From Ectocarpus siliculosus (Eukaryota; Sar; Phaeophyceae; Ectocarpales; Ectocarpaceae), in NCBI GenBank assembly GCA_000310025.1, contig FN648615.1:1-25425 (forward strand): DNA of 25,425 nt. The letters run 5' to 3'. A model generated the notes under the pieces. It did not search any database. It saw only the letters and a list, made by a program, of their open reading frames with translations, and was not told the DNA's origin. The number at the start of each line of letters is the position of its first letter. The first letter of the stretch is position 1. This document shows, in pieces, positions 1 through 12,428 of the stretch. The translations under genes were made by a program, and so were the position numbers.

Positions 1-651
1 TGACAAAATAAGGGCCGTCAGCGATTCAATCTGAGATGCTGTTTTCAATCTCCAACCCTTTTTTCTGTGACACGTGACAAAATGGGGGCCTTAACCCAAG
101 GAATACACACAGAAAACAGTGTTTCGATCTGAGATCGTGTTTTCAATCTCCAACCCTGTTTTCTGTGACACGTGACAAAATGGGGGCCCTAACCAAGACA
201 TACACTGTGAAATCAGGGATTCAATCTCCAACCCTGTTTTCGGTGACACGTGACATAATGGGGGCCCTAAGCCAAGGAAAACAGGGCTTTAATCCCCAAC
301 CCTGTTTTCAATCTCCAACCCTGTTTTCTGTGACATGTGACAAAAAGGGGGCCCTAAGCCAAGACATACACTGTGAAAACAGGGATTCAATCTCCAACCC
401 TGTTTTCAATCCCCAACCCTGTTTTCTGTGACACGTGACAAAATAGGGGCCCTAAGCCAAGACATACACTGTGAAAACAGGGATTCAATCTCCAACCCTG
501 TTTTCAATCTCCAACTCCAACCCTGTTTTCTGTGACACGTGACAAAATGGGGGCCCTAAGCCAAGACATACACTGTGAAAACAGGGATTCAATCTCCAAC
601 CCTGTTTTCAATCTCCAACCCTGTTTTCTGTGACACGTGACAAAATCGGGG

Positions 652-681
652 CCCTAACCCTAACCCTAACCCTAACCCTAA
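652..681. repeat. Interstitial telomere-type tract (CCCTAA)5
   Basis: Five uninterrupted CCCTAA units follow directly from the GGGGCCCTAA of a satellite monomer. TTAGGG is the telomere repeat of animals, many fungi, and various algae and protists. The tract is internal to the satellite, so it is an interstitial telomeric sequence and not the chromosome terminus. It runs in the same direction as the CCCTAA seed present in each monomer. Confidence 0.95.
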
Positions 682-1205
682 GAGGGATTCATCTTCAACC
701 CTGTACTCAATCTCCAAACCTGTTTCCTGTGACACGTGACAAAACGGGGGCCCTAAGCCAAGACATACACCGTTTATAGAGAGTTTCAACCTGAGATCCT
801 GTTCTGAATCTCCAACCCTGGTTTCTGTGACACGTTATAAAATGGGGGCCCTTACGCTAAGGAAAACAGGGCTTTAATCCCCAACCCTGTTTTCAATCTC
901 CAACCCTGTTTTCTGTGACATGTGACAAAAAGGAGGCCCTAACCCTAAGAGGGATTCATCTTCAACCCTGTACTCAATCTCCAAACCTGTTTCCTGTGAC
1001 ACGTGACAAAAAGGGGGCCCTAAGCCAAGACATACACCGTTAATAGAGAGTTTCAACCTGAGATCCTGTTCTGAATCTCCAACCCTGGTTTCTGTGACAC
1101 GTTATAAAATGGGGGCCCTTACGCTAAGGAAAACAGGGCTTTAATCCCCAACCCTGTTTTCAATCTCCAACCCTGTTTTCTGTGACGCGTGACAAGATGG
1201 GGGCC
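681..1205. repeat. 267-bp higher-order duplication in the satellite
   Basis: The block from AGAGGGATTCATCTTCAACC at 681 recurs at 948, a shift of 267 bp, and the similarity runs to about 1205. Both copies carry the same private variants: CCAAACCTGTTTCC, GACACGTTATAAAATG and CTTACGCTAAGGAAAACAGG. Part of the array was therefore copied as a multi-monomer unit, by unequal exchange or gene conversion. Confidence 0.85.
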
Positions 1206-2011
1206 CTGAGCCAAGACATACACCGTGATCACAGGGTTTCAACCTGAGGTCCTGTTTTGAATCTCCAACCCTCTTTCCTGTGACACGTGACAAAAAGGGG
1301 GCCCTAAGCCAAGGCATACACCGTCAAAACAGTGTTCCAATCTGAGATCCTGTTTTGAATCTCCAACCCTGTTTTCTGTGACACGATACAAAAAGGGGGC
1401 CCTAACCTAAGGCATACACCGTCGAAACAGTGTTTCAATCTGAGATCCTGTTATCAATCTCCAACCCTGTTTCCTGTGACACGTGGCAAAATGGGGGCCC
1501 TAAGCGAAGACATACACCGTGAAAACAGCGTTTCAATCTGAGATCCTGATTTGAATCTCCAACCCTGTTTTCTGTGACACGATACAAAAAGGGGGCCCTA
1601 ACCCAAGGCATACACCGTCAAAACAGTGTTTCAATCTGAGATCCTGTTATCAATCTCCAACCCTGTTTTCTGTGGCACGTGACAAAAAGGGGGCCCTAAC
1701 CCAAGGTATACACCGTCAAAACAGCGTTTCAATCTGAGATCCTGTTTTGAATCTCCAACCCTGTTTTCTGTGACACGTGACAAAAAGGGGGCCCTAACCC
1801 TGTTTTCAACCTCCAACCCTGTTTTCTGTGGCACGTGACAAAATGGGGGCCCTAACCAAAAAGGGGGGCCCCAACCCTGTTTTCAATCTCCAACCCTGTT
1901 TCCTGTGGCACGTGACAAAATGGGGACCCTAACCAAAAATGGGGGCGCCAACCCTGTTTTCAATCTCCAACCCTGTTTCCTGTGACACGTGACAAAAAGG
2001 GGGCCCTAACC

Positions 2012-3625: not shown

Positions 3626-4545
3626 TTACTGCTGGCCCTCCTCCTTTTCCTGTTTGTCGAGAAGGGGAAAGTGGACCCCCAGAGCGCTGGCCACGCGGTA
3701 GTCCTCAACGGTGCCACGGAACGCTTCGAACCCCGACTTAACCTCTTTCCCGTTGTCGTCGTACATCGGGCGGGCCGTCTCACCGAGGAGGCCGGACAAC
3801 GCCGGGTTCTCAACGTCCAGCCCGTCCACCACAACGTCCATCTGCCAAAACTCGAGGTCAGGGATAACCCGTCCATCCCAGTGTAGCTCCCCGTCGCCCT
3901 GGTGGTTGACGCCAGCATCGAGGCGCACCGCGAGAGTGGGCGTCTCGATCTTGAAGATGGCGTGGGTAGATTGCATGTCGGCGAGGTCGTTCTCGGCGAT
4001 GTACTTGGCGCACCAGCCGGGCGCAGGCATGTGATCGGACTTTAGGATCCAGTCCTCGAAGCTTTCACGTTTGGCCAGCTGGCGCCTACCCTCTAGCATT
4101 TCCTGGTACATGCGCCCCCATATCTTATGACCGCCGAACTGCCGGCACTCCACCGGAAGGTTAGAAGCAGACACTGAGATGGCACCGTCGGCAACTGGCA
4201 ACTGCCTGGAGAATCGAAGGAGCTCATCTGCTTTCTGGCCGTCGACAAATACGCGCAGTCCGCCGTTCGCAAGGCAGGGCGAAACGCCCTCAGGACAACC
4301 GTCGGTGTCGGTGGCGTAAGGGTTTTCCACTTCGATGACGAGAGAGTGTCCCTCCGACATTACGGCCAGGCTCGTGATCAACTGGCGGTCGGGGAACTCG
4401 TCAGGCAGAGGAGCGGTTACGCGAAGGTTGATGTTGATATCGGAATCATCGTCCTTGACCAGGGAGTACCATCCGCCGTCAACCCCGGACCAGTTGATTC
4501 TCTGGCCACGAAGACCTTGCATGTGGGGATCTCCAGTGGCGCTGC
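3626..4545 (-). CDS. Secreted/cell-surface-type GDPH protein with Root_cap/VWD-like domain (3' exon)
   Basis: This is the longest convincing coding exon in the window, about 306 codons. It opens with SATGDPHMQGLRGQ and INWSGVDGGWYSL, the GDPH start typical of VWD-like and algal Root_cap-like domains. Cysteines appear as DGCPEGVSPC, ECRQF and GWC. Near the C-terminus, LSGLLGETARPMYDDNGKEV and a DYRVASALGVHF stretch match the G-LG-T and DYR blocks I associate with the Root_cap family (PF06830). It ends in a lysine/glutamate/glutamine tail and TAA at 3626-3628. The open frame extends upstream to a TTG, but a strong 3' splice site (pyrimidine tract, then CGTCAG) sits just before GCAGCGCC at 4545. 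I take 4545 as the exon boundary, which places the start codon in an unseen 5' exon. I searched 4546-5300 on the minus strand and found no signal-peptide exon or good donor. The role is probably extracellular or wall-associated; the molecular function is unknown. Confidence 0.75.
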
Positions 4546-5257
4546 CTGACGAGTATTGTGAGGAACATTTGAGAGCGGAGAAGGACGACAACGAATCGCG
4601 GAGCCGTTGTGTAAATTGGGGAAAGGAAAACGCACGAGATATTTAAACTAGACGTGCTGCCTATAAAGGCAAGATACCATGCAGCACAACGATTCTTCGC
4701 AAACGCACCAGTTATTCCCAGGCCGGACGCGCGCTACGTATAAACAACTTGGCAATGGAAGTCGACACAAAAATTTCAATATCTTTGCATTCGGCGTATA
4801 TGTTGCAAAGAACGCTTTTCTGCAATGTAGAGCTTATTTATTGTCGATATTTTCCGTGATTCCTTCTGTCAGCGAAACAAAAAAAGCGGCGTATTTTGCC
4901 AACCAGTTGCGGTTTGGAGTAGTGAGTCCGATGGTATGGGCCACTCAAAAACACCGCAGTGAATGCCTATCGACCTGTGTCATTTTGTTTGCGGGTCGCG
5001 ATGCCTGTCATTTTAGCGCCGGAAGATAAAGGCGAAATCTTGCGGTACAGATGGGCACCACATGCACGTAGTGCTAGGAAGCAGTGCGACATCAACGGTG
5101 CCGGCGCACGTCCGCTGGTCTCCTGTCTCTATGCTCGCGACCAACCACCCACCCAAACCACGTTGGACAACAGGTAAATTGACATATCAGAGCTGGCTCT
5201 GCGTCTACGCAGGTCGGCCGTGTCTGCATCAGTGTTGGGGTTGTTATGCGGCGATGA
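4546..5257. other. Intron or upstream region of the Root_cap-like gene; no other gene seen
   Basis: On the minus strand the first about 60 nt form the pyrimidine tract and 3' splice site of the exon ending at 4545. A TAA lies in that frame near 4640, so the frame cannot continue upstream uninterrupted. The open frames here (4679-5029 +, 4959-5177 +) match nothing I recognise and mostly lack good start contexts. Confidence 0.4.
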
Positions 5258-5605
5258 GGAGGTCTCATCCGATGTCCAGGCGAGGAAGCGTTAAGAGCAG
5301 CGGGAGATTTTTCGGATGTGTGGTCCACGAGGCACATCAACGAGCAAGAGGCGTACGCGTTGAAGCAGACGTTGGTATTGTACTGTAAGGAGCGGCCGAA
5401 ACAAGTCAAGGGATCGACGTTGGTGATGGACGTAGACAATAAGTAAGGCGCTTTTCTACGCGGTGGAGAGAGGGCAAACTACGAACTCCTGTATAGGGTT
5501 GAGATGGCCAACCCAAAGCTCAATCATGCCCAGAAAACAAAGGGTCACTACTACACGCCGAGATACCCTCCTAAACAATCCGGCCCATTCTCAACACCCA
5601 ACTGA
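5258..5605 (+). pseudogene. Retroelement RNase H-like fragment (DIRS/tyrosine-recombinase type), broken
   Basis: One frame runs from 5258 to a TGA at 5603-5605 with a single internal TAA at 5444-5446. From 5321 it reads WSTRHINEQEAYALKQTL, then a KERPKQVKGSTLVMDVDNK block, the stop, then GAFLRGGERANYELL. The order H-I-N-x-x-E-A-x-A-L, a later V-x-G-x-T-L-V-x-D-x-DN, and R-x-G-x-R-x-x-x-ELL is the RNase H pattern of DIRS/Ngaro-type retroelements, where the catalytic acidic residues are the E of the HINEQEA block and the D of DVDN. The stop directly follows DNK, and no reverse transcriptase or recombinase was found nearby, so this is a relic. Its 3' end runs into the repeat unit starting near 5570. 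Confidence 0.55.
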
Positions 5606-7200
5606 TTATGATATGAGCTTCGGGCGTACAACAAGCGTAGGTGCAGTGAGCCAAAAGGGTTGAGCACCATCAATCTCACCAGGGGTAGGCGCTGGTGTTA
5701 GGAGGAACACCGAGAGTAGCACCGAGGATAGACCCAGAGTAGCAACAAGAGAGTAGCACCGAGTGGGAACGAGAGCATTGCGGGAGGCCGACTGAGTGTG
5801 GGCAGATGTCGAGTTAAACGAAGCGTGTGGAAGTTGTTCACGTAAATCCCAAACATCATGATGACACATCAACCCATCCACATTCGAAATGAGCTCGTCG
5901 AAAGATTGTTGTCGTCAGACAGGCAGATTTGCGGGTATTTGGGGGATTGGGATTGAACGGCAGGGTCAAGTCAAATTTGCCGTCGCTGCTGTCATTTTCC
6001 GTCGCTCATATGCTGCTGTCATATTTTCCAGGTCTTGTTTCGTTTTCAGGCGTCAGGCGTGTGCAATTCAACTCATCACCGCGGCGGGCGTTTGCGGAAT
6101 GCGGGAGCTACAGTACAGAGCTACAGTACAGGTGTGCACCCTATGCACGCCGTGCAGTGCTGTGCAGCAGTGCGACGACAAAGACACCCAGCACAAGTGG
6201 CTGTTCGTGGTTCCCTTCTCCACGTCCCATCCCAGCCTCGACAACGTGGGACAAGGGCAATATGAGCCGGTTTCGCTCTCAAGCAGGCGGCAGCCATATC
6301 AACGGTTGGTTGAAAGGCAGCAACGGAGTTGACATTTCGTACATAATGCTGATCGTGCCTGTCAAACAACAGCAGTGCAATATTTTACGCGGAAGGAAAT
6401 CTTGCAAACAATTTCGATCACGGTAATCCGGACCATTTTCCAACACCAAGCTGATCGGCTGTTTTCCGACGTACACCAAGCACAGGTGCAGCGAGCCAAC
6501 ACGAATTGGCAACCATCAATCTTACCGGGGGTAGGCTCTGGCTCTCGTGGTGGTAGGAACACCGAGAGTAGCACCGAGTACAGGAACCAAGCGTAGTAAA
6601 AAGAGGGAAGCACCGAGGGGGTACGTGAGGCATGAACACGGCGTCGAGTGTGTTCGGGTGGATATCAATTTGGAAAATGCGTGTGTCAGTCGTTCGTGTG
6701 TACCCCAAACATCGTGATGGGACATTCACTCACGGACCTTTGAAGGGGCTCGTCGCAACAATCGTTGTACCAGACGGGTAGATGGTGAGTTTTGGGCGTC
6801 GATTAAGAGGGCCAACTCAAAACACAATTTTAACTCAAAACACAATTTTCCGTCTGTGAATGGGTTGAAGTTCGTTTTCGTGTGTGTGATGCCTCGGTTC
6901 TTACAGCGGCGGGAGATAGGCTGAAAGCTGGCTGAACAGATGTGCACCACGTGAACGCAGTGATTCGAAGCAATGCGACAACGCGACCCCCGGCACACGC
7001 GAGCTGTTCTTGGTCTCCTTCCCCGCGACCCACCACCAGCCCCAACAACGTGGGACAGAAGCACTACCAGGTATGAGACGGCTTCTCTTCTAACAAGGCG
7101 GGAGCCATATCAAAACGTTAAAATGGTTAGAATGGTAATCGTGCACCATCAAGCAACAGTGTAATACTCCACGCCGAAAACAATGTTAGAAACAACTTCG
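5570..7200. repeat. Two tandem degenerate ~0.8-kb units (X1, X2)
   Basis: Unit X1 (about 5570-6420) and unit X2 (about 6421-7200) share an ordered set of blocks: AATCCGG.CCATT, a (T/C)GTACA(A/C)CAAGC block, CCATCAATCT.ACC.GGGGTAGG with ACACCGAGAGTAGCACCGAG, a CCCAAACATC.TGATG block, and CAACGTGGGACA. The start motif recurs at about 7200 as a partial third unit. Divergence is high with many indels. On the minus strand each unit has a cysteine-rich stretch behind an AACAG splice acceptor (right edges 6200 and 7003). These share C-x-G-x-x-C-R and A-x-x-H-C and differ by a 3-nt in-frame gap, so they could be decayed exons. No intact gene is supported. Confidence 0.7.
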
Positions 7201-7489
7201 ATGACGGTGATCTGAACCATTTTCATCACGCTTTCAGTGTGTCGCCTAGGGCAAATAGCTGATCCTTGCCAACGTCAAAGACAACATTGGAAATTTTGTG
7301 AGAAAGTCTCCCATACCAGCGCATGCTTTCTACCTCCGGCGCGTTTCAAGATATCAGGCCATTGGCCAACCTCGAAGGTTCCCGGTTGAAAAACATTCTC
7401 CGTTGGGGTGAAAGAGGTCGTCATACTCGACGGTGGTGGGGCTTGGTTACAGGCCTAATCTCCGGAATCTCCGGCAACGCAGGATTCGA

Positions 7490-8600
7490 CGGAAGAAGGC
7501 TTTAGTTATAATGACCGACCTTCGGTAGTCGAAGCGGGATGAGCGCAGCCAGAAACAAACCTACATTCGACATGTGCTCCAGATGGGGGAAAAAGTAAAA
7601 CGTTGCTTTCTTGACATGTTCTTTTACAATGCCTGCATCGAATTGACAGGCGCCAACAAAACTGGGATCATGAAGTACTGCGGACTCGATCACGATGGGA
7701 GGATTCCCCCTTCCCCCGTCCTATGTATAGAAGGCCGGACATCGAAACCCTACGTAGTGCGCTCCCGCCACGTAGCACAAGGCGCATGACCAGGCCATGA
7801 AGCCATGAAGCAAGACACATTTGTTTTTGTGGTCATCGCCTGTCGGCTGAGAGTGGTGTTTGGGGTGATGACGATGACAGCGGGTTTAGTTGGGTTGGTC
7901 ATGAATACCGGACAACTTTCGCGACATCAAGCTTTGATCCATTCGAATAAGCCCCATATCCATCCGTTGCTCGTTGACAACAATCATGTTTTATCGTTAC
8001 CTGCACATTCCCCGTCGGAGTTGCACACCAGATCATCTTCGCAGTCGCATCCGTCTCCGGTGAAGCAAGGGTCGCCGAGAGCAATAGCGCTTTTTTCTAA
8101 GGATGCAGAGAGTGGGCCAGAAATGCAGACGACAGAAAATGTATTTTGATCCAGAAGACTTCCAGGACCGCCCATCGCAATACAACCGAAGTGAGGCGTC
8201 CCAGACGTGACTGCCCGACAATGGGGAACTTCCCATGACATCAGCTCAGAATGCTTCGCCTCGAGAAATGGTTAACAATCAAGCACCATGTCCGACCAAA
8301 AGTGGCGAATGATTTTGATGAGACGGACAACCCAACCAAATAGTGTAACTCATACCCGTTTGAGCGTAAGTTATGTACGTGCATGTTACATGTCAGAGAA
8401 GAAACGTTGTTAGCACCATGTTCTCGCCGCAACCGGGCGGGTACACTTTGCCCTTGGCTTTCCCTGTGTCGATGCTTTCTAACCTGTGCAGACACCGTCC
8501 GCGCAGCACTGTGAGGAGCACTGCGAGTCCTGGGTACACTCTGTACGGTTTCAGACACGAACAAAGCGAGGGTAGATACTTAGGGTGGGCGTGGGCTATT
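7490..8600. repeat. Left arm of an old segmental duplication
   Basis: This stretch aligns in order with about 10630-11770, including intronic sequence: GCGGACTCGATCACG (7679 region and 10817 region), the GGCCATGAAGCAAG block, GATGACAGCGG, GAGTTGCACAC.AGATCATCT with TCGCAGTCGCATCC, and TCCTGGGTACAC.CTGTACGG. Introns show indels while the cysteine exons stay aligned. Together with the paired degenerate units left of each arm, the whole duplicated segment is roughly 3-3.5 kb per copy. Confidence 0.8.
7833..8540 (-). pseudogene. Left copy of the ten-cysteine secreted-protein gene (5' end not found)
   Basis: Minus-strand exons match the copy at 10825-12428. The exon at 8484-8540 (57 nt, acceptor CCGTACAG, donor GTTAGA) encodes a C-x5-C-x3-CC-x4-C segment that includes CTQDSQCSSQCCADGVC. 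The exon at 8001-8096 (96 nt, acceptor CATCCTTAG, donor GTAACG) encodes GDPCFTGDGCDCEDDL and a VCNSDGEC tail. All introns are phase 1. A short last exon at 7833-7846 (acceptor CACTCTCAG) would add a few residues and TGA. The exon-2 deletion of 12 nt relative to the right copy is in frame and spares every cysteine, and exon 3 is the same length in both. No signal-peptide exon was found between 8541 and 9300, so this may be a 5'-truncated duplicate, or the first exon may have diverged or moved. The weak GTTAGA donor is another sign of decay. Confidence 0.6.
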
Positions 8601-9269: not shown

Positions 9270-10300
9270 ATATCAATATCAACGAGGGCCAACCATGGTG
9301 TTCGTGTTGACCATCTGCAAGTTCAACTCTGGGACTCGTAAGATAACACCACAAGAACATTACAACACTCCAAAACGATTCGACACCATCAATCTCACCA
9401 TCGGGCCCTGTTGATCGTGGCATCGAGGAAAGTACCAAGGATAGCACCGAAGGAAAACGCGAGGAGGGGAGGCGGTGCCGACTGAGTGCGACAGGTACTA
9501 GTCGGAAATATCGTGTACTCTCTACACGGAAATCCCAATCGAGTGACACAGAATGAATATGTCCGGTCATCAACGAGGGGCTCGTCGCCGACCTTCGTCC
9601 TATCCCTAAGCCAGTGCTCATCCCCAGTATATCACAACCAAAATACTCGTGAAGTGCTAGCATCAGACCACTTTCTTTCGCCAACACAGTTCCAGTAACC
9701 CTGGTGGGTTAGGGTAAACCCTGGTGGGTTATCAAGCTAGTGCATCAAGCCGGAGTGCGAAATTCCATACGATCCTACACACCCCAGCACGCTACAGTCG
9801 CCCGTCAACTAACCAGCTGGCAAGGGTACACACAGAGTAACGCGCCCCCGTTCGAGACTGGTATGTTCCGTAACAGGATGGGCGTTCCAAACCAAAAGAA
9901 TACGTTGCCGGAAAAAAGTCGCTTGTACCTTATACGGGGATACGGAGCGCTCGCCTGCGACAGAATGTACACTCGTACAAACTCATCGTGCCCACCGAAT
10001 GTAAATATTCGTCGCGGTTTTCCAGTTCGACTATGGCGGTGATGAGGGCGGTGTACAACACCGAAACTGAATGCAGCAGTACCAAATCTTTCGTACAACA
10101 CACGTGGGTGCAGTGAACCAAACCGGCGCACCATTGGATCTTACCAGTGGGGGGCGTAGGTGGCTCTGATGATGATCGCACCGTGGGTAGCACCGTGGAG
10201 ATACATGAGGCATGAACGGGGGCCGACAGAGTTAAGGCTTTTAAAAAATGTGCAAGTTGTTGATGGCAATCCCAAGAACGTGATGCAGCATTTTACCCAT
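9270..10300. repeat. Two further degenerate units (X3, X4) left of the right gene copy
   Basis: The diagnostic block CCATCAATCTCACCATCGGG with ATAGCACCGA occurs at about 9386, and a CCATTGGATCTTACCAG.GGGG block with GTAGCACCG at about 10132. Each is followed by a GAGG-rich block and a CCCAA.AACGTGATG-like block, as in the units at 5570-7200. Minus-strand open frames across them (9235-9687, 9930-10193) look protein-like only in short stretches and differ in frame between units, so I annotate repeats and not genes. Confidence 0.6.
9697..9731. repeat. Short tandem repeat TAACCCTGGTGGGTTAGGG
   Basis: Two near-identical copies of a 19-bp unit (TAACCCTGGTGGGTTAGGG, then TAAACCCTGGTGGGTTAT) lie end to end. 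Each copy contains the inverted pair AACCC/GGGTT, so the unit is also a small hairpin and is telomere-like on both strands. Confidence 0.7.
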
Positions 10301-10629: not shown

Positions 10630-11770
10630 GATGGGTTTAGCTTAAGTCGCCTACCGCCACCGCTGCATCTGGCACCTGGGTGAGTTGTGGGATGAGCGAA
10701 CCCATGATCCATTTCGATATTCGCTCAAGATGGGGAGACGATTCAAGGCGTGGGTGCCCTACCGACGTGCACATTGGCGAGCCGTTGCCAACACTAACGG
10801 TACTACGATTTTCCGCGGACTCGATCACGTTGGGAGTATTTGCCCTTGCTGAGAAGGCCGCACACCAACAACCTTGTACGCGCCCACCACATACAACACA
10901 AGCACATTACGAGGCCATGAAGCAAGGCCTATCTTATGTAGTCGCCTCCTATCCACTAAGGGAGGTGTTGGGGGATGGCGATGACAGCGGACTTGCTTGG
11001 GTCGGTCGAGGCTACTGCTGTGACCGGACACCTTACGCGAAGCACGACAAATTTGATCAAACATAGATAATTGTTCATGGCCACATCAACGTTGTTCGTC
11101 GATATCATATTTTCACGTTACCTTCGCATTCATAGTCGGAGTTGCACACGAGATCATCTTCGCAGTCGCATCCATCATGGCTGAAGCAACTTTCGCCGAC
11201 GCCTCTAAAGCTTTTGTCTACAAAGGCACGGAACGTGAGCCAGAACCACAGAGGTCAATATGAGACGTGGGGTTATGGAGACTTGCACGACCGCCCAGCG
11301 CAGAACAATCGATCGAAGGGAATCGACTCAAGGGGTGACTGTCTACCCCTTGGGAACCTAGCTCTTGGACACTTCATCGTGGAACAACAGGGATGGTTTT
11401 GAACTTCTCAAAGCGTTACGGCAGTATTCAGTCAGCGTAATGAGAACGTCCAGAAATGAAGCAGCCTGTTCAACTAAGTGGCGAAGAACTTTTCTAGGCC
11501 GGACAACCCATGCGCTACTACCGTGGTCTACATGTGCGTGATCTCCGACGTGCGTATCACGAGGCAGGGTGTAACATATGTAGCTCGCGCCGCGTTCTCT
11601 CCACGTTCTCTACGCATTCCGGTAGATAAAGTGAAACACTTGGCCCTCGGGCTTCCCAAGTGTCGACGTGTACTTACAGATGCAAACGAACGGTTCTGGA
11701 CGCGTCGAGCAGCACCGCGAGTTACAGTTTGTGTCCTGGGTACACGCTGTACGGTTTCAGGCAAGCACAA
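10630..11770. repeat. Right arm of the old segmental duplication
   Basis: This is the partner of about 7490-8600 in the same orientation. It holds exons 2-4 of the better-preserved ten-cysteine gene. Conservation peaks over the codons for GCDCEDDL and the following VCNSD, where the two copies differ by a single base, and drops in the introns. Confidence 0.8.
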
Positions 11771-12428
11771 AAGGAGGGCAGGCAAAGGCAGCGGGGCGTT
11801 GTACTCGGAAAATATGCTGGGCAATGAGGTGGCCGACTGCGGCGTTGAGAATCGTTTCCATGTTCGAAACGAGCTTCACTTACATAATACGAAACCGACG
11901 ATACCGACGCTACAGGACAAGAACCGGAAAGAGCGGCACGTGGTCGCTGTCACAGAAGCACGCATTCCACGTTTCCAATATTACCTCCGATATCACTTAG
12001 ATTCGGTGATGGTCCCAACCTGCTTAGAACGGAAGTCACCAATAATGTACGAACGTTGTTTGTGGGCGATACTGACACAATAAGGGTGGAAGGGTGGCAG
12101 CTGATTCCAAGTATGATGCTCTTCCCACAATGGCGATGATACGACACATCAACCAAAACATACTTACTTTCAGCAAATCGGTGTTTTCTGTATAAGGCGA
12201 TGAGAGATTCCTGGGAATTGCAATGCCTTGTGCATGGAAGAGTGCATGGAACAGTGGAGAGAGCGATGGACAGTGGTGACAAATTTTCAGACGAAGCCTC
12301 GCTTCACTTCCACTTTGCTTTGCGACATTCTTACCATCCAAAATGTCCTGCGCCAAAGCCCATTTCGAAGAGACCAGCACGCATAGCACCACCGCCACAA
12401 ATACTGTGGGTGTCCTTGGCATTTGCAT
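10825..12428 (-). CDS. Secreted ten-cysteine protein, colipase/dickkopf-type cysteine order (4 exons)
   Basis: Proposed minus-strand exons: 12335-12428, 11678-11746, 11122-11217 and 10825-10955, all joined in phase 1 (94+69+96+131 = 390 nt, 129 aa plus stop). Exon 1 begins MQMPRTPTVFVAVVLCVLV and ends KWALAQDILD. This is a classic signal peptide with an A-L-A cleavage site, and the donor is GTAAGA. The second Met (12422) is an alternative start. Exon 2 (acceptor CCGTACAG, donor GTAAGT) encodes CTQDTNCNSRCC and a VCI end. Exon 3 (acceptor CCTTTGTAG, donor GTAACG) encodes GESCFSHDGCDCEDDL and VCNSDYEC. The mature cysteine order is C-x5-C-x3-CC-x8-C-x11-C-x5-C-x-C-x5-C-x5-C, the arrangement of colipase, dickkopf C-terminal and prokineticin-type folds. 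Exon 4 (acceptor CCTCCCTTAG) is least certain. An alternative acceptor CTTCTCAG near 10850 opens a different tail ending near 10637. Likely an extracellular small protein; ligand and role unknown. Confidence 0.65.

What the first reader, a model, noticed from the sequence alone, without database searches (positions are those of the whole stretch)
10825..12428. A colipase/dickkopf-order ten-cysteine secreted protein in what looks like a protist genome
The exons give a signal peptide followed by C-x5-C-x3-CC-x8-C-x11-C-x5-C-x-C-x5-C-x5-C. This order, with CC early and C-x-C later, is the one known for colipase, dickkopf C-terminal and prokineticin-type domains, which are best known from animals. 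If the host is an alga or other protist, this is either an undescribed non-animal branch of the fold or convergence.
Basis: partly seen in the sequence, partly recalled or inferred. Interest (0 to 1): 0.82.

Follow-up and report, generated by a model that had tools for sequence, protein, structure and literature searches.

The report
Cysteine-rich secreted protein, brown alga
A gene, very probably of a brown alga, encodes a small secreted ten-cysteine unit that is kept in several gene copies, and it is better explained as the front part of a local family of modular secreted proteins than as a relative of animal Dickkopf or colipase.

Summary

The genome carries EsV-1-7 repeats in bulk, so it is very probably a brown alga. 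Five copies of the unit were found, three with a signal exon and two without; all ten cysteines are kept in 5 of 5.

The unit is probably the N-terminal part of a larger gene. Window exons 8540-8484, 8096-8001 and 4545-3626 continue in phase to a 443-residue protein (signal, unit 1, unit 2, 'GDPH' domain); C279 gives the same with 446 residues. Elsewhere 8 of 9 hits of another cysteine module lie just upstream of GDPH exons. There is no RNA evidence.

The cysteine order resembles Dickkopf CRD2 (0.2% of gap permutations, uncorrected), but no sequence method tried links them.

The parts
12335..12428 (-). exon 1: start and signal peptide (MQMPRTPTVFVAVVLCVLVSSKWALAQDILD)
   Evidence: kept in C279 and C8, an altered isolated piece in C229. 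Signal peptide judged by eye, no predictor run
11678..11746 (-). exon 2: cysteines 1-5 of unit 1
   Evidence: acceptor CAG, donor GTAAGT; paralogues
11122..11217 (-). exon 3: cysteines 6-10 of unit 1; ends G|GTAACG
   Evidence: paralogues; donor-like GTAA at its end in 4 of 5 copies
8484..8540 (-). exon 4 (this work): cysteines 1-5 of unit 2, CTQDSQCSSQCCADGVC
   Evidence: donor GTTAGA
8001..8096 (-). exon 5 (this work): cysteines 6-10 of unit 2, CFTGDGCDCEDDLVCNSDGEC
   Evidence: donor GTAACG
3626..4545 (-). exon 6 (inferred link): GDPH domain, 302 residues from GDPH on, and stop
   Evidence: acceptor ACTCGTCAG, phase 1; dN/dS 0.23 against C279
10826..11121 (-). block after exon 3 also alignable after exon 5 and in the other copies; role unknown (intron element or 3' UTR).

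Best explanation
The ten-cysteine stretch is the N-terminal unit of a secreted modular protein of a brown alga: signal peptide, ten-cysteine unit 1, ten-cysteine unit 2, GDPH domain (443 residues in the window model). Shown: the three exons, five related units, kept cysteines, phase-1 junctions, and an open frame through all six exons in two diverged loci. Inferred: that all six exons are spliced into one transcript; that the protein is exported to the cell surface or wall; and that the disulfide-held units are small binding heads carried on a GDPH domain anchored in or assembling with the matrix. Each exon of a unit carries five cysteines, an odd number, so at least one disulfide must cross the exon 2/3 border if all are paired within the unit; the two exons then form one domain. 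Between the window and C279 the unit has dN 0.21 and dN/dS 0.38 against dN 0.07 and dN/dS 0.23 for the GDPH domain; the unit's dS is also higher (0.56 against 0.29), so only part of the difference is selection. Faster change would fit heads that recognise varying partners (speculative).
For: Exons and phases. Joined frame of 443 residues with 0 stops at GT-AG borders in the window, and of 446 residues with the same six exons in C279. Order unit 1 - unit 2 - GDPH on one strand in C279 (19593-18392, 13842-13316, 5485-4469). C279's GDPH reading meets a TGA just before its acceptor and has no ATG in between, so it needs an upstream exon. A six-cysteine module hits 9 places at E up to 10, 8 of them 0.3-2.6 kb upstream of a GDPH exon on the same strand (distances; the C30 one is weak, E 0.93). 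Of four such loci given, three showed the module, all three ending TGCG|GTGAGC in phase 1, and 2 of these 3 GDPH exons begin AG|GTGACCC in phase 1, as the window junctions do. dN/dS of the mature unit 0.38, 0.57, 0.46 in three pairs; unit 2 pair 0.29; GDPH 0.23. A cysteine-rich exon type of other GDPH genes weakly matches exon 5 (E 8e-5 in a 25 kb search without composition correction).
Against: No transcript data. The C8 copy is intact but no unit 2 or GDPH was found in the 8 kb held downstream. Without splicing, exon 3 (or 5) meets a stop 3-6 codons after the last cysteine in 4 of 5 copies. The block after exon 3 is better conserved between window unit 1 and unit 2 (73%) than intron 2 (61%), which suits a 3' UTR, though in the unit 2 pair the reverse holds (65% against 83%). 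One hydrophobic start upstream of unit 2 (8796; C279 14085) is shared by both copies and in the window is followed by a GTAA in phase 1, so an own signal exon for unit 2 is not excluded; the GTAA is not listed for C279. In C279 another cysteine-rich exon with a GTAAGA donor lies between unit 2 and GDPH; the window has no convincing match to it there. The window GDPH exon is 94% identical in DNA to a C4 copy without such units in the 9 kb held upstream. One C279 donor is weak (GTTGGT). Exon DNA is no better conserved than intron DNA; without cysteine codons dN/dS is 0.62, 0.84, 0.59; one signal-exon pair is 1.22, and exon 3 compared between unit 1 and unit 2 gives 0.38-1.06.
Confidence: 0.55

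Rival explanations
1. Unit 1 is a stand-alone secreted ten-cysteine peptide of about 60 mature residues whose last exon is exon 3 read through to a stop (EGNVKI, AGKVKI, EGW), with its own 3' UTR. It acts as a free defence or signalling peptide.
For: The C8 copy is intact without unit 2 or GDPH in the 8 kb held. Stop 3-6 codons after the last cysteine in 4 of 5 copies. Block after exon 3 alignable in all five.
Against: GTAA donor kept in 4 of 5 copies at that point. Unit 2 then needs its own signal exon, for which only one candidate start is shared and no shared donor. Other cysteine modules of this genome have the same kind of donor after their last cysteine.
Confidence: 0.25
2. A true colipase-fold domain, homologous to Dickkopf CRD2, colipase and prokineticin, in a brown alga.
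For: Same cysteine order and similar spacing, permutation fraction 0.0022 uncorrected. The exon border falls between the two five-cysteine halves.
Against: No match in Pfam or PDB; Dickkopf_N 0 but its controls were silent; Prokineticin profile weak and elsewhere. hhalign E 0.13 and not above shuffles. Loop between cysteines 6 and 7 is 5 against 16 residues.
Confidence: 0.08
3. Convergent cysteine-knot-like domain: the first six cysteines (C-x5-C-x3-CC-x8-C-x11-C) form an inhibitor-cystine-knot-like core built from local cysteine modules, and the last four are an add-on.
For: GDPH genes of this genome carry C-x5-C-x5-CC-x4-C-x11-C modules. PMC6078440 (passages) notes that Dickkopf subdomains themselves resemble cystine-knot proteins. 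The cystine-knot spacing is recalled.
Against: Our unit and the six-cysteine module do not find each other in genome searches. Disulfides unknown. Compatible with the best explanation, so this is a rival on fold, not on gene structure.
Confidence: 0.4
4. Decaying gene fragments left by segmental duplication, no longer making protein.
For: Exons and introns equally diverged. The C229 piece is altered and isolated. One C279 donor is weak, GTTGGT.
Against: No stop or indel in 259 coding columns of three copies. Ten cysteines kept in 5 of 5. Six-exon frame open in two loci. dN/dS below 1 for mature units and 0.23 for GDPH.
Confidence: 0.12

Closest known systems
Dickkopf CRD2 (DKK1, PDB 5fww_C) and the colipase fold
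   Same: Ten cysteines, CC at positions 3-4, C-x-C at 7-8, secreted, several spacings equal or within two
   Different: No detectable sequence relation. Loops 6-7 and 9-10 are 5 residues here, 16 and 17 in DKK1. No Wnt-linked context tested
Prokineticin / AVIT family (Pfam PF06607)
   Same: Small secreted ten-cysteine protein encoded in three or four exons (PMC2694302, passages)
   Different: No profile match at the units. The AVITGA start that PMC2694302 calls essential is absent
Cysteine-module plus GDPH genes of the same genome
   Same: Cysteine-rich phase-1 exons placed upstream of a GDPH exon
   Different: Their modules seen here have six cysteines or other patterns; the ten-cysteine unit was found in five places only
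EsV-1-7 cysteine-rich proteins of brown algae
   Same: Cysteine-rich family of the same organism group
   Different: Pfam scan of our protein gave 0 families

Membership tests
Colipase fold / Dickkopf CRD2 | Order of ten cysteines with CC at 3-4 and C-x-C at 7-8 | tested here: met
Colipase fold / Dickkopf CRD2 | Sequence or profile similarity to known members | tested here: not met
Colipase fold / Dickkopf CRD2 | Five-disulfide topology and two-finger fold | not testable with these tools
   structure prediction switched off
Dickkopf_N (PF04706) | Profile match in this genome | tested here: inconclusive
   0 matches, but 0 of 14 controls rang either
Prokineticin (PF06607) | Profile match at the units | tested here: not met
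   4 weak matches elsewhere, none over cut-off
Cysteine-module/GDPH genes of this genome | GDPH exon downstream on the same strand in matching phase, frame open through all exons | tested here: met
   window and C279; the C8 copy lacks it in the 8 kb held
Cysteine-module/GDPH genes of this genome | Spliced together in a transcript | not testable with these tools
   no RNA data
Secreted protein | N-terminal signal peptide | tested here: inconclusive
   hydrophobic start kept in three copies; judged by eye, no predictor on hand

The most novel reading that the evidence does not exclude
Brown algae hold an undescribed compact branch of the colipase-like two-finger fold, encoded half a domain per phase-1 exon, duplicated in tandem and mounted on a GDPH domain as a fast-changing extracellular binding head.
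Probability: 0.15. Interest if true: 0.6.

Novelty: new variant of a known kind. Interest (0 to 1): 0.3.

Why it matters
If the gene model holds, it adds a fast-changing disulfide-rich unit to a large GDPH-type family that Pfam does not clearly recognise (window copy 0 families; one of five relatives weakly DUF6395, E 0.03), in a lineage that evolved multicellularity on its own. If the fold proved colipase-like it would bear on whether this fold arose outside animals. As it stands the finding is a modest addition to secreted cysteine-rich proteins.

Tried and rejected
Homology to Dickkopf CRD2 by profile: not found; cysteine-preserving and full shuffles score as high in 69 of 200 and 38 of 200. 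Relatives of the unit in prokaryote genomes and viral contigs: 0 confirmed of 37 and 32 pattern matches; GDPH in viral contigs 0 confirmed of 36. A DNA pattern for G-C-D-C gave 6 places, five being the units and one (C2) not a unit on reading its frames by eye; the reversed pattern gave 2. Own signal exon for unit 2: several hydrophobic starts listed; one is shared by both copies (8796; C279 14085) but not with a shared good donor, so none was adopted. Two of four weak Prokineticin-profile places (C32, C375) proved to be nearly identical cysteine-rich exons, C32's lying 1.6 kb upstream of a GDPH exon; the other two did not look like cysteine modules by eye. The cysteine-rich exon lying between unit 2 and GDPH in C279 has no convincing match in window 4545-8001. 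C4's contig start does not share the window's satellite. Paper searches on Dickkopf or colipase with algae, protists, Dictyostelium or Ectocarpus and on GDPH with algae listed nothing on such a protein, and PMC8307928 (two passages) was no help; apart from the passages cited, only listings with abstract starts were seen. PMC4963804 (passages) says Dickkopf has been detected in Dictyostelium; not checked further.

Full report
What is there. The fourth exon is not supported: the AG stands at that place in 3 of 5 related copies, and in two of those the frame stops after four codons (phase read by me from that alignment).

Host. The window is the start of contig C134 in a 189 Mb assembly of 492 contigs. 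The EsV_1_7_cys family gave 150 matches (150 of 880 candidates scored), with 0 of 14 control genomes ringing. A review says that this family has expanded in brown algae (PMC7457493, one passage). I take the host as very probably a brown alga; the species is not known.

Copies. A protein search of the own genome listed 13 places at E up to 10: 12 are exons of this family and one (C1, E 0.18) is taken as chance. With the search by unit 2 and the alignments they make three full copies (window, C279:19593-18392, C8:248589-249731), an isolated altered first exon (C229) and two second units without a signal exon (window 8540-8001, C279:13842-13316). A DNA pattern for the G-C-D-C part found the same five units and one unrelated place; the reversed control pattern gave two. 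Such searches can miss diverged copies.

Is it under selection? Between the three full copies, exon DNA is as diverged as intron DNA (exons 2+3 72-78%, introns 73-78%), which speaks against strong constraint. But coding columns have 0 gap openings in 259, against 18-24 in 791-920 intron columns. The ten cysteine columns are invariant in 5 of 5 units, against 13 of 46 other columns. dN/dS of the mature unit is 0.38, 0.57 and 0.46, and 0.29 for the unit 2 pair; with cysteine codons left out the three rise to 0.62, 0.84 and 0.59; one signal-exon pair is 1.22, and exon 3 compared between units 1 and 2 gives 0.38-1.06 over six pairs. Site numbers are small (about 32 synonymous sites in the mature unit), so these are rough; dS (0.51-0.63) is also higher than the intron divergence. 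In short, the cysteine frame is kept and the rest changes fast. For the same two loci (window, C279) the GDPH exon has dN 0.07, dS 0.29 and dN/dS 0.23, while the unit has dN 0.21, dS 0.56 and dN/dS 0.38.

Surroundings. Downstream on the same strand lie unit 2 and a 302-residue GDPH domain (exon 4545-3626), one of 93 exon-level matches in this genome. The window copy has no Pfam match (one of five relatives weakly matches DUF6395, E 0.03) and no PDB relative better than E 0.14 (that top hit is Fc fragment of IgG binding protein, which I recall as having von Willebrand D domains; the likeness of GDPH to that domain is recalled, not shown). C279 keeps the order unit 1, unit 2, GDPH, and its GDPH reading meets a TGA before the acceptor. 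All junctions being phase 1, the six window exons join into 443 residues without a stop, and the six C279 exons into 446. Elsewhere a six-cysteine module found 9 places at E up to 10, 8 of which lie 0.3-2.6 kb upstream of a GDPH exon on the same strand (distances taken; the C30 place has E 0.93 and the odd one out, C22, E 0.06). Of four such loci given to three showed the module (L016 returned none); all three end TGCG|GTGAGC in phase 1, and 2 of the 3 have an AG|GTGACCC GDPH start. The ending of our units, G|GTAA in 4 of 5, is the same kind of border. A third kind of cysteine-rich exon, found upstream of GDPH at C66, weakly matches exon 5 of the window (E 8e-5, window search without composition correction).

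Against one gene: the C8 copy is intact, yet no unit 2 or GDPH lies in the 8 kb held downstream; unspliced, the last unit exon stops 3-6 codons after the last cysteine in 4 of 5 copies; the block after exon 3 is more conserved between window unit 1 and unit 2 than intron 2 (73% against 61%), though in the unit 2 pair it is the other way round (65% against 83%); a hydrophobic start upstream of unit 2 is shared by both copies, with a GTAA after it in the window only; in C279 another cysteine-rich exon with a good donor stands between unit 2 and GDPH and has no convincing match in the window there; and the window GDPH exon is 94% identical in DNA to a C4 copy without such units in the 9 kb held upstream. 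I give the six-exon gene 0.55.

Colipase question. The cysteine order and spacing do resemble Dickkopf CRD2, whose letters were checked against PDB 5fww_C; 0.22% of permutations of our gaps come as close, without correction for choosing this fold among many. Profile methods find nothing: Pfam (only DUF5885 at E 1.1 in one unit), PDB, hhalign probability 0.45% with 69 of 200 cysteine-preserving shuffles at least as good. The Dickkopf_N search is uninformative because its controls were silent. PMC6078440 (passages) proposes that Dickkopf and colipase domains grew by duplication of one cystine-knot-like subdomain, so a similar order could arise again (my inference). The fold could not be modelled. 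The unit may work like a colipase-type disulfide scaffold; membership is not shown.

Most likely working. A secreted surface or wall protein with two disulfide-held heads on a GDPH domain. Export, binding and matrix location are inference; no ligand is known.

Noticed in passing
window 5577-5928 with 6425-6783, 6128-6440 with 6936-7224, 5000-5169 with 6888-7057, 5625-5728 with 10092-10199: Dispersed repeat units 66-72% alike, also frequent in C279 between unit 2 and the GDPH exon; some read as short cysteine-bearing frames on the minus strand. Nature unknown.
   Followed up: no
window 10826-11121 and the matching block after exon 5: About 300 nt after the last unit exon can be aligned in all five units; between unit 1 and unit 2 they are closer than intron 2, in the unit 2 pair not. 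Could be a 3' UTR or an intronic element.
   Followed up: partly
window 277-2011: Satellite-like array, mostly of about 98-bp units, at the start of contig C134, with a (CCCTAA)5 run at 652-681; possibly subtelomeric.
   Followed up: partly
L007 (C4:2500-12400), upstream of its GDPH exon: An exon-like frame resembling a HYR domain (recalled) and a damaged-looking cysteine module upstream of the GDPH exon most similar to the window's.
   Followed up: no
L014, L009, L020, L021: Another cysteine-rich exon type (LSCPAxxC...VGDxxDCGG...CC) occurs upstream of GDPH exons at C66, C279 and C32, and on C375; no Pfam scan was run on it.
   Followed up: partly
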